Positions 5,078-44,433 of a DNA stretch of 64,000 bases are shown piece by piece. This DNA is from Mycobacterium sp. ITM-2016-00316 (GTDB lineage Bacteria > Actinomycetota > Actinomycetes > Mycobacteriales > Mycobacteriaceae). The stretch's first letter is position 1; each line of letters begins with the position of its first letter. The stretch covers positions 3,410,001 to 3,474,000 of the forward strand of contig NZ_CP134398.1 in NCBI RefSeq assembly GCF_002968335.2, given 5' to 3'. The notes beneath the pieces were generated by a model, which was not told where the DNA came from, did no database searches, and saw only the letters and a list, made by a program, of their open reading frames with translations. A program made the translations under genes and the position numbers.

Positions 5078-5960
5078 TCAGGTCAGCTCGGTGAGACGTT
5101 CTTCGGCGTCGGTGACACCCTCGACGTCGACGGCAGCGGCGTTGATGAAGGCCTGCACCGCGTCATCGGGGCGACCGAGAGCGAGCAGGGTCTCGGCATA
5201 GACGTAGAACAGCCGGGCACTGGTGGTCCCGAGGCGGGTCGCGTCCAGCGGCGGGCTGGACAGCAGCGCCAGCGCCTGTTCGTGCTGGCCGAGATCGGAT
5301 CGCGCGCCTGCCACCACGATGCGCAATTCATCGGCATCGTCACCGGTGAGCTGCCGGGCCTCGTCGCTGCGGGCCAGCTCGACGGCCCGTTCCGGGCGCC
5401 CGACACCGCGTTCGCAGTCGGCGATCAGCGGCAGCAATGCAGACTTGCTGCCCATCCGGCGAGCGGCACGCAATTCGGCGAGCGCCTGCGCCCAGTCACC
5501 GCAGTAGTAGGCCGCGATACCGACGGCTTCGCGGACCGCGGCGATCCGGCCGGAGCGGGCACGCGCGGCGCGGGCGTGTTCCAGCGCAGCGGCAGGATCA
5601 TCCTCGAAGAAGTTCCCCGGCCGCCACCAGGTGGCGTGCCACGACGTCGGCCGTGGACTTGTCCAGGGTGATCAGCTCGCTGCGGATCTCGGGAGAAAGT
5701 TGTTTGGCTTCGATCTCCGGGGGGATGCGCGGGCCGACCGGACGGTCTTCGCCGTCCTGATCGCGCCGGCTGCTGGGCCCGGACGACCATGGTGGGCTGG
5801 GCCGATCACGACCACCTCGATGAGGTGCGCCGCCGGCTCCGGAACGCTGAGCACCGTTGGCGCCGGACCGGTGCCCGGTGTTCCCACCGGTACGCGGGCC
5901 GTCGCCCGCCGCCCGGCGGAAGGGCCGTTCGCCGCTGCCGGCTTGTCTGTCCTCGGCCAC
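5078..5960 (-). pseudogene. TPR-like protein (Rv1691 family) with an apparent +1 frameshift
   Basis: Two open frames together encode one protein. The 5' part starts at a GTG (5960) behind AGGAAGG and has a long low-complexity Gly/Arg/Pro/Ser region, then IPPEIEAKQLSPEIRSEL and VVARHLVAAGELL. It then meets a TGA at 5598. The family sequence continues in the next frame from 5605: EDDPAAALEHARAARARSG, IAAYYCGDWAQALAELRAARRM, CERGVGRPERAVELA and FYVYAETLLALGRPDDAVQAF, to the stop at 5078. Removing one base from CTTCTTCGAG (5603-5612) restores a single frame of about 293 aa. The repeats look like degenerate TPRs. It may be a real lesion, a recoding site or a sequence error. The function is unknown. 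Confidence 0.8.
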
Positions 5961-6093
5961 AGTCGCCTTCCTGATTGATCAACCGTCTTTCCGAAAGGAT
6001 AGCCGGGAGCCGGCGAAACACGACAGCTGCACGAATATCGGCCATTAACTGCCATTCAATTCGGACTGGAAATGGTCACCGAATTACGGTATG

Positions 6094-6128
6094 CCTCGGC
6101 CCTCCAAACGGTGTTTGGAGGGCCGAGG
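6094..6128 (-). terminator. rrnB operon terminator hairpin
   Basis: A perfect 16-bp inverted repeat (CCTCGGCCCTCCAAAC and its complement) with a 3-base loop lies just downstream of the 5S gene. There is no run of U after the stem, which is usual for mycobacterial terminators. The stem strength and position make termination of the rRNA operon the likely role. Confidence 0.88.
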
Positions 6129-6138
6129 GCTTAATGTG

Positions 6139-6253
6139 TGTTCGGCGGTGTCCTACTTTTCCACCCTTTTGGGTAGTATCATTGGCGCTGGTAGGCTTAG
6201 CTTCCGGGTTCGGGATGGGACCGGGCGTTTCCCTGCCGCTATGGCCGCCGTAA
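6139..6253 (-). rRNA. rrf: 5S ribosomal RNA
   Basis: Read on the minus strand, the 115-nt gene starts TTACGGCGGCCATAGCGG and ends CACCGCCGAACA. It has the conserved GGGAAACGCCCGGTCCCAT and CCGAACCCGGAAGCTAAGCC segments of mycobacterial 5S RNA. It is the last gene of rrnB. About 195 bases of GT-rich spacer separate it from 23S, and I see no tRNA in that spacer. Confidence 0.96.
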
Positions 6254-43022: not shown

Positions 43023-43784
43023 CAGCGCCTGCGCGCTCTCATAGAGGCAGATGGCGGCCGCCGCAGCCACATTGAGGCTCTCGGCACTGCCGCGCATGGG
43101 GATGGTCACCTGCGCGTCGGCGGCCGCGGCGACCGCGGGTGCCAGGCCGTGCGCCTCCGAACCCAGCAGCCAGGCCGTGGGCAGGCTCAGATCGACCGAA
43201 GGCAGCGGAGTCTCGCCCTCCAGGGTGGTGGCCAGCACCTGCAGACCCGCACTCCGCAGTGCGGCAATGAGTTCGGGCGTATCCGGGACCTGGACCACAG
43301 GCAGCCCGAAGATGCTGCCCGCCGAGGCCCGCAGGCATTTCGCGTTGTAGGGGTCGACGCTGTCACCGGTGAGGATCAGCGCATCGGCGCCCATGGCGTC
43401 GGCGAGCCGGATCAGCGTGCCCGCGTTGCCGGGATCGGAGGTCTCGACCGCGACGGCCACCAGCCGCGGCGCCGCCAGCACCTCGGACAGGGCGACCTCG
43501 GGGATCTCGCACACCGCGATCAACCCGACCGGAGTCACGGTGTCCGACAAGGCCTTTGCCGCCCGTTCGGTCACCTCGTGCACCGGGGCGCCGGCGAGCA
43601 GATCCGCGAACCGGGCGTGCGCGTCCTCGGTGGCGAAGACCTCCTCGACGAGACCACGCCGCAGCGCTGCCTCGACCAGGTTGGGACCTTCGGCGAGGAA
43701 GCGTGCGGCGTGGCGACGTCCGCCGGGACGCTGCAGCTTGATCGCTGCAGCTACCCGATTGGACTTCTCGGTGAGGGGTGTCAG
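43011..43784 (-). CDS. tsnR: SpoU/TrmH-family rRNA 2'-O-methyltransferase (TsnR-like)
   Basis: This is a SPOUT methyltransferase of about 257 aa. The N-terminal substrate-binding part is LTPLTEKSNRVAAAIKLQRP then ARFLAEGPNLVEAA. The catalytic part has VETSDPGNAGTLIRLADAMG, LRASAGSIFGLPVV, AWLLGSEAHGL and ESLNVAAAAAICLYES, the three SPOUT motifs. The conserved N-terminus has no ATG, GTG or TTG in frame; the best start is a CTG at 43784 that overlaps the rplT stop (CTGA). The first normal in-frame start is the GTG at 43583, which would delete the conserved N-terminal 67 residues. It is the last gene of the infC operon and overlaps the acyl-CoA dehydrogenase end by 12 bases. Confidence 0.85.
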   Translation of the reverse strand: MTPLTEKSNRVAAAIKLQRPGGRRHAARFLAEGPNLVEAALRRGLVEEVFATEDAHARFADLLAGAPVHEVTERAAKALSDTVTPVGLIAVCEIPEVALSEVLAAPRLVAVAVETSDPGNAGTLIRLADAMGADALILTGDSVDPYNAKCLRASAGSIFGLPVVQVPDTPELIAALRSAGLQVLATTLEGETPLPSVDLSLPTAWLLGSEAHGLAPAVAAAADAQVTIPMRGSAESLNVAAAAAICLYESAQALSAQ

Positions 43785-44170
43785 GCGGCTTCGCCCGACG
43801 GCGCGTTGACATCCTCGGGCAGGGCCGCCTTGGCAACCTCGACCAGAGCGGTGAACGCGGCCGGATCGCTGATCGCGATCTCCGACAGGTTCTTACGGTC
43901 CACCTCGACGCCGGCCAGCTTGAGGCCCTGGATCAGGCGGTTGTAGGTGACGCCGTTGGCGCGGGCCGCAGCATTGATCCGGGAGATCCACAGCTTGCGG
44001 AAATCGCCCTTGCGGGCCTTGCGGTCCCGGTAGGCGTAGGTCAAGGAGTGCAGCTGCTGCTCTTTGGCCTTGCGGTAGAGGCGTGACCGCTGGCCGCGGT
44101 AGCCCTTGGAAGCCTTGAGTACTGTGCGCCGCTTCTTTTGAGCGTTGACTGCGCGCTTCACGCGTGCCAT
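43781..44170 (-). CDS. rplT: Ribosomal protein bL20
   Basis: This 129-residue large-subunit protein is needed early in 50S assembly. It starts MARVKRAVNAQKKRRTVLK and has SRLYRKAKEQQLHSLTYAYR and FRKLWISRINAAARANG, diagnostic of L20. In many bacteria L20 also represses its own operon. It lies 67 bases downstream of rpmI, and its stop overlaps the presumed tsnR start. Confidence 0.97.
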   Translation of the reverse strand: MARVKRAVNAQKKRRTVLKASKGYRGQRSRLYRKAKEQQLHSLTYAYRDRKARKGDFRKLWISRINAAARANGVTYNRLIQGLKLAGVEVDRKNLSEIAISDPAAFTALVEVAKAALPEDVNAPSGEAA

Positions 44171-44237
44171 GAGGGTGTTCCTATTCTTGCGGGGAAAGTC
44201 TGGAGGGAGGAAGCGGCTTTTCGGCCGTTCGACCGAT

Positions 44238-44433
44238 TTAGCCGTTCAGCATCTTCTTGACGCGGGCGGTGTCGTTGGCGGCAACGGTGACGCGGCCGTC
44301 CAGGCGACGGGTGTGCTTGCTCGCCTTGTGCTCGAAGAAGGTGGCGCTTGCCGGCCTTCTGCCGGACGACCTTGCCGCTTCCGGTGACGCGGAAGCGCTT
44401 GGATGCGCCGCTGTGGGTCTTTGCCTTGGGCAT
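44238..44433 (-). pseudogene. rpmI: Ribosomal protein bL35 gene with one extra base (frameshift)
   Basis: The start MPKAKTHSGASKRFRVTGSG then KVVRQKAGKRHLL is L35. In the same frame the sequence then loses similarity and runs past the normal end to 44158. The next frame gives EHKASKHTRRLDGRVTVAAN then DTARVKKMLNG and a TAA at 44238. The gene spans 196 bases, exactly 64 codons plus stop plus one base. The extra base lies in CTTCTTCGAG (44331-44340), where homologues read Leu-Leu-Glu. Since infC and rplT are intact on both sides and L35 is nearly universal, loss of the gene is unlikely. A sequence error or +1 recoding is more plausible. Confidence 0.93.

What the first reader, a model, noticed from the sequence alone, without database searches (positions are those of the whole stretch)
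5603..44340. Both frameshifts occur at the same decamer, CTTCTTCGAG
In both genes the shift follows the second CTT and the product would be Leu-Leu-Glu. CTT followed by the rare codon CGA is a plausible +1 slip site: the tRNA on CUU can re-pair with UUC, as in the CUU slip of prfB. Reading by eye I found no other CTTCTTCGAG and no intact CTTCTCGAG in the window. The alternative is a systematic sequencing error at CTTCTCGAG, for example at a methylated site. Either answer is informative.
Basis: inference. Interest (0 to 1): 0.75.

Follow-up and report, generated by a model that had tools for sequence, protein, structure and literature searches.

The report
Assembly error at a methylation-type motif
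Two genes in this mycobacterial genome look broken at the same ten letters, but the break is most likely a repeated sequencing mistake at a short DNA motif that the bacterium probably methylates, not a new way of reading genes.

Summary
CTTCTTCGAG occurs twice in the window, both times where a conserved gene changes frame: a tetratricopeptide gene and rpmI (ribosomal protein L35). Relatives are one base shorter at each site (76 of 76 loci aligned across the rpmI site, 16 of 16 across the other). A +1 slip is not supported. The genome holds 41 decamers; 24 of the other 39 lie in sense in called genes and all 24 read TTC-TTC-GAG without a break. In 1.664 Mb sampled, I accept 12 further frame breaks (8 well supported, 4 by judgement); 3 sit at the heptamer CTTCGAG (0.09 expected). 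One of the 3 carries it on the opposite strand, where the mRNA offers no CUU CGA. The shared element is thus CTTCGAG on either strand, one base longer than the palindrome CTCGAG: a DNA-level, strand-symmetric event. CTCGAG is depleted (0.46 of expectation) and the genome carries an adenine-methylase gene followed by an 85% homologue of a M. smegmatis protein, which I take for the MSMEG_3213/3214 pair predicted to recognise CTCGAG. Raw reads, methylation calls and platform were not available.

The parts
5603..5612 (-). Decamer CTTCTTCGAG, site 1, at the frame break of the tetratricopeptide gene
   Evidence: relatives one base shorter in 16 of 16 aligned loci
5598..5960 (-). Upstream open frame (120 aa) of the tetratricopeptide gene; stops two codons after the decamer's CGA
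5078..5605 (-). Downstream frame (175 aa + stop) of the same gene, tetratricopeptide family
   Evidence: PF12688
44331..44340 (-). Decamer CTTCTTCGAG, site 2, at the frame break of rpmI
   Evidence: relatives one base shorter in 76 of 76 aligned loci
44158..44433 (-). rpmI upstream frame as it stands: L35 residues 1-33, then out of the L35 pattern
   Evidence: ORF span; PF01632 positions 1-33
44238..44333 (-). rpmI downstream frame (31 aa + stop)
   Evidence: PF01632 positions 33-61
44457..45098 (-). infC (translation initiation factor IF-3) upstream of rpmI; used to fetch named relatives
   Evidence: name by homology and recalled gene order infC-rpmI-rplT
6140..11528 (-). rRNA operon (16S 10008-11528, 23S 6446-9571, 5S 6140-6252) upstream of the tetratricopeptide gene

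Best explanation
The two frame breaks are residual consensus errors in the assembly, of a systematic kind. The shared element is not the decamer but CTTCGAG on either strand, one base longer than the palindrome CTCGAG. The organism encodes an N6-adenine methylase gene followed by a 331-aa gene whose close homologue in M. smegmatis I take for MSMEG_3214, the partner of a methylase that REBASE predicts to recognise CTCGAG. Methylated CTCGAG in native DNA would disturb base calling in some contexts, and a fraction of sites would keep an indel after polishing. Shown: the breaks, their absence in relatives, the shared heptamer, the opposite-strand case, the CTCGAG depletion, the gene pair. Inferred: that CTCGAG is methylated in this strain, that the assembly rests on native long reads, and that the real genes are intact.
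For: Relatives one base shorter at four CTTCGAG-type breaks: 76 of 76 and 16 of 16, 4 of 4 at 3750500 and 12 of 13 at 4459208. 3 of the 12 breaks accepted outside the window lie within 18 nt of CTTCGAG/CTCGAAG, 0.09 expected, P 1.2e-4; in the 1.2 Mb fetched after the heptamer was proposed, 2 of 7 against 0.05, P 0.0012. At 4459208 the gene-sense strand reads CTCGAAG, so the event is strand-symmetric. CTCGAG is at 0.46 of expectation in the G000 sample, third lowest of 54 palindromes, against 0.86 in 400 kb of G011; its ratio to the reversed control, 0.71, is the lowest among the 16 same-genus genomes searched (the others 0.81-2.28). Methylase at G000:2809373-2811031 with Eco57I/N6_Mtase domains and sequence kinship to M.BseCI and M.TaqI; the next gene (2811021-2812013) is 85% identical to a M. 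smegmatis protein. PMC7526240 (passages and section 14) reports that REBASE predicts CTCGAG for the MSMEG_3213/3214 pair. PMC6591954 (passages) and PMC12392509 (passages) document consensus errors at methylated motifs in nanopore assemblies. Other accepted breaks do not share this motif, as expected of ordinary residual errors. P0122, listed without source, is a near-identical whole tetratricopeptide protein on another contig.
Against: No raw reads, platform or methylation data. 349 CTCGAG sites stand in the same 1.664 Mb, so at most a small share is affected, and 2 intact sense CTTCTCGAG sites exist. In an unbiased ranking of 7-mers near 35 looser candidates the heptamer came only fifth (4 against 0.48, P 0.0016 before correction), and one of those 4 looks like a gene boundary. 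The last 400 kb gave 2 accepted breaks, neither with the heptamer. CTCAG is as striking at breaks (4 of 12 against 0.37, P 6e-4); it could come from the same palindrome, from CTCCAG or from something else. M. tuberculosis MamA recognises CTGGAG, not CTCGAG (PMC3701705, passages). PF04555 (XhoI) found nothing, but its control was silent too. G002 carries a 53% homologue of the second gene without CTCGAG depletion (ratio 1.78), so gene and depletion do not always go together.
Confidence: 0.83

Rival explanations
1. The indels are real in the strain's DNA: genuine mutations, with CTCGAG sites as hot spots, for example after self-cleavage by the linked endonuclease and error-prone end joining.
For: The endonuclease-like gene is present, CTCGAG is depleted, and breaks concentrate at CTTCGAG on either strand.
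Against: At least 8 conserved genes in 28% of the genome are broken, plus L35, which would be costly together; breaks are mixed in kind; a refilled 5' four-base overhang would give +4 rather than +1 (recalled). No reads to decide.
Confidence: 0.08
2. Programmed +1 frameshifting: the tRNA on the second CUU re-pairs with UUC while CGA waits in the A site, giving Leu-Leu-Glu.
For: Frame and product fit at both sites; CTT and CGA are infrequent codons (3.1 and 5.4 per 1000); no other decamer in the genome stands in this register, so it is untested elsewhere.
Against: Not conserved in 76 of 76 and 16 of 16 relatives. CTT CGA G is read in frame in 3 unbroken gene calls (2 of these calls are over 900 nt long). 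The break at 4459208 has the heptamer on the other strand. No stop codon in the A site and no shared Shine-Dalgarno-like stretch upstream (features of prfB recalled).
Confidence: 0.03
3. Two independent ordinary errors or mutations that share the decamer by chance.
For: The assembly has other breaks without this motif; the heptamer's association rests on 3 of 12.
Against: The decamer occurs 41 times in 5.99 Mb; finding both window breaks on it, and 3 others on its last seven letters, is unlikely by chance.
Confidence: 0.06

Closest known systems
Residual consensus errors at methylated motifs in long-read assemblies (Dcm sites in nanopore data, PMC6591954; PMC12392509)
   Same: Errors recur at one short motif, fall in genes and break frames; only a part of the sites is affected (PMC12392509 says most methylated motifs gave no error).
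   Different: Here the motif is inferred from frame breaks, not from reads; the platform is unknown.
MamA / MSMEG_3214 restriction-modification pair of M. smegmatis (PMC7526240)
   Same: Adenine-methylase gene with the next gene overlapping by 11 bases; the second gene is 85% identical to a M. smegmatis protein.
   Different: Specificity and activity untested in either organism; that the M. smegmatis record is MSMEG_3214 is inferred from length and neighbourhood.
prfB-type programmed +1 frameshift (recalled)
   Same: CUU in the P site; re-pairing one base on is sterically imaginable.
   Different: No stop codon, no shared stimulator, no conservation, and one break with the motif on the other strand.

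Membership tests
prfB-type programmed +1 frameshift (features recalled) | Shift site conserved among orthologues | tested here: not met
   76 of 76 and 16 of 16 aligned relatives lack it
prfB-type programmed +1 frameshift (features recalled) | Stop codon in the A site | tested here: not met
   CGA in both
prfB-type programmed +1 frameshift (features recalled) | Shine-Dalgarno-like stimulator just upstream | tested here: not met
   Read by eye: a GGGG near site 1, nothing alike at site 2
prfB-type programmed +1 frameshift (features recalled) | +1 product made in vivo | not testable with these tools
   needs reporter or proteomics
Methylation-motif error in an assembly | Same short motif at several unrelated breaks | tested here: met
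   CTTCGAG at both window breaks and 3 of 12 others
Methylation-motif error in an assembly | Strand symmetry | tested here: met
   CTCGAAG in gene sense at 4459208; one case only
Methylation-motif error in an assembly | Motif is methylated in this strain | not testable with these tools
   indirect: methylase gene and CTCGAG depletion
Methylation-motif error in an assembly | Reads contradict the consensus | not testable with these tools
   no reads held
MamA/MSMEG_3214 restriction-modification pair | N6-adenine methylase next to the MSMEG_3214-like gene | tested here: met
   identity with MSMEG_3214 inferred
MamA/MSMEG_3214 restriction-modification pair | Recognition of CTCGAG | tested here: inconclusive
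   CTCGAG avoided, but M. tuberculosis MamA reads CTGGAG and XhoI family search was silent with a silent control

The most novel reading that the evidence does not exclude
CTCGAG sites are true indel hot spots in this strain: leaky self-restriction by the methylase-linked endonuclease, repaired inexactly, leaves one-base scars in genes, so the restriction-modification system itself erodes CTCGAG from the genome.
Probability: 0.05. Interest if true: 0.6.

Novelty: not a real feature. Interest (0 to 1): 0.2.

Why it matters
It removes a tempting recoding claim and shows a usable sign: when unrelated genes of one assembly break at the same short motif on either strand, look for a methylase. Databases hold other broken L35 entries as well (8 of those listed, broken at other points), so such breaks should not be annotated as pseudogenes or recoding without reads.

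Tried and rejected
Decamer as the unit: rejected, other breaks share only CTTCGAG. Conversion of many CTTCTCGAG into the decamer as cause of its scarcity (13, against 19-115 in 24 same-genus relatives): rejected, since the 39 other decamers lie in unbroken or uncalled stretches and the decamer count, 41, is within the relatives' range 15-53; depletion of CTCGAG fits better. Broken L35 entries P0002-P0009 looked like the same shift but keep the HLLEHK stretch and break later. 7-mer ranking around 35 loose candidates was diluted by gene boundaries; I then required the upstream frame to run on for more than 45 nt (24 candidates, one of them the window's tetratricopeptide gene) and checked the other 23 by Pfam. 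Accepted with family matches on both sides or relatives: 3256658, 2067384, 2955048, 3577642, 3750500, 4459208, 4958567, 5253843 (8). Accepted by judgement: 3283863, 3369134, 3392344, 1968112 (4; 3392344 has TIGR03860 from profile position 35 downstream, upstream piece silent). Dropped as adjacent genes or unclear: 3330237, 3493266, 269741, 466244, 1764350, 3058780, 4355378, 4657256, 4862185, 24225, 208119 (11; none shows the heptamer). Paper searches for CTCGAG with m6A and nanopore and for programmed frameshifting with rpmI (the term RPMI swamped it) gave nothing used. In one search a line for 17 candidates used a miscount (16 is right) and is not cited.

Full report
What is there. The window is G000:C1:3410001-3474000 of a one-contig genome of 5,986,944 bases. 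Protein neighbours and named loci are Mycobacterium/Mycolicibacterium. CTTCTTCGAG occurs twice, at 5603-5612 and 44331-44340, both minus strand. At the first, a tetratricopeptide gene behind the 5S rRNA leaves its frame and stops two codons after CGA; its continuation lies in another frame. At the second, rpmI keeps the L35 pattern to residue 33 and continues it in another frame.

Relatives. Of 109 relative loci compared at rpmI, 76 align across the site and all 76 are one base shorter; 9 align in part and 24 gave no match. At the tetratricopeptide gene 16 of 16 aligned relatives are one base shorter (24 given, 5 partial, 3 without match). Near-identical whole proteins exist: P0122 matches the frames as read here except for the start residue and one other residue, and P0018 agrees with the L35 tail at 29 of 31 residues. 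Both are listed without source, so their independence of this strain cannot be shown, but their contigs (5,465 and 1,142 bases) are not this assembly.

The decamer elsewhere. The genome has 41. A frame model on 3-kb stretches around the other 39, and on the window, places 24 in sense within genes, all reading TTC-TTC-GAG in one frame; 12 antisense; 3 outside called genes; and the window's 2. The register CTT-CTT-CGA occurs only at the two breaks, so a slip at exactly this decamer has no other test case in the genome. The shorter in-frame string CTT CGA G stands in 3 unbroken gene calls of the 1.664 Mb sample (3363718, 3534335, 3166142).

Other breaks. I sampled 1.664 Mb (28%) of the genome: 464 kb round the window (plus the window) and 60 pieces of 20 kb. 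The frame model gave 24 changes in which the upstream frame runs on for more than 45 nt. One is the window's tetratricopeptide gene. Of the other 23, I accept 12 as broken genes: 8 with family matches on both sides or aligned relatives, 4 by judgement; 11 I dropped. Three of the 12 have CTTCGAG or its complement within 18 nt: 3392344, 3750500 and 4459208 (0.09 expected, P 1.2e-4; on all 23 candidates 0.17 expected, P 7.7e-4; on the 8 best supported, 2 against 0.06, P 0.0018). The heptamer was proposed from 3392344, so the fair test is the 1.2 Mb fetched later: 2 of 7 accepted breaks, 0.05 expected, P 0.0012. At 3750500 relatives are one base shorter in 4 of 4, at 4459208 in 12 of 13. Results on the other side: an unbiased 7-mer ranking put the heptamer only fifth, the last 400 kb added no case, and CTCAG is also over-represented at breaks (4 of 12 against 0.37).

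Why this is not a slip on CUU CGA. At 4459208 the gene-sense strand reads CTCGAAG, so the message there contains no CUU CGA. What the breaks share is a DNA motif on either strand. The leading CTT of the decamer is not shared by the three outside cases.

Why CTCGAG. CTTCGAG is one base longer than this palindrome. CTCGAG is found 349 times in the sample against 756 expected (0.46, third lowest of 54 palindromes), against 0.86 in 400 kb of G011. The whole-genome ratio to the reversed control is 0.71, below the 0.81-2.28 of 15 same-genus relatives; some genomes of other genera are lower still. The genome encodes an Eco57I/N6_Mtase-type methylase (2809373-2811031) and, overlapping it by 11 bases, a 331-aa protein without Pfam, NCBIfam or PDB match that is 85% identical to a M. 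smegmatis protein and has relatives named restriction endonuclease in UniRef. PMC7526240 (passages and section 14) describes MamA and the co-transcribed MSMEG_3214 of M. smegmatis and reports REBASE's prediction of CTCGAG for both; it also says that activities and methylation were not measured. Against this, PMC3701705 (passages) finds CTGGAG for MamA of M. tuberculosis; a family search for XhoI was silent, as was its control; and among 24 relatives searched the second gene is found in G002, without CTCGAG depletion, and in G028, with a low ratio of 0.47.

Verdict. The frame breaks are best read as residual consensus errors at a methylated CTCGAG. PMC6591954 (passages) shows how such errors dominate native nanopore consensus at Dcm sites, and PMC12392509 (passages) shows that usually only a small part of methylated sites is affected, as here. 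The weak points are the small number of cases, the unknown platform and the lack of reads.

Noticed in passing
G000:C1:3256658, 2067384, 2955048, 3577642, 4958567, 5253843 (loci L200, L248, L257, L193, L272, L275): Further frame breaks in a malate synthase G, a Meth_synt_2 protein, a tautomerase, a polyketide synthase, a response regulator and an AMP-binding enzyme, without the heptamer; four accepted breaks elsewhere or among these show CTCAG nearby.
   Followed up: partly
L290:3373-6016 (G000:C1:2809373-2812016): Methylase gene followed by an overlapping gene without any Pfam, NCBIfam or PDB sequence match, widespread in Mycolicibacterium records; a candidate restriction gene of no catalogued family.
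   Followed up: partly
P0002-P0009 (public L35 entries): Eight L35 entries whose tails leave the family pattern downstream of HLLEHK, i.e. L35 frame breaks at other points in other public assemblies.
   Followed up: partly
G030, G028, G031, G033 (other genera): CTCGAG to reversed-control ratios of 0.24 to 0.57, lower than in G000; possible CTCGAG avoidance there too.
   Followed up: no
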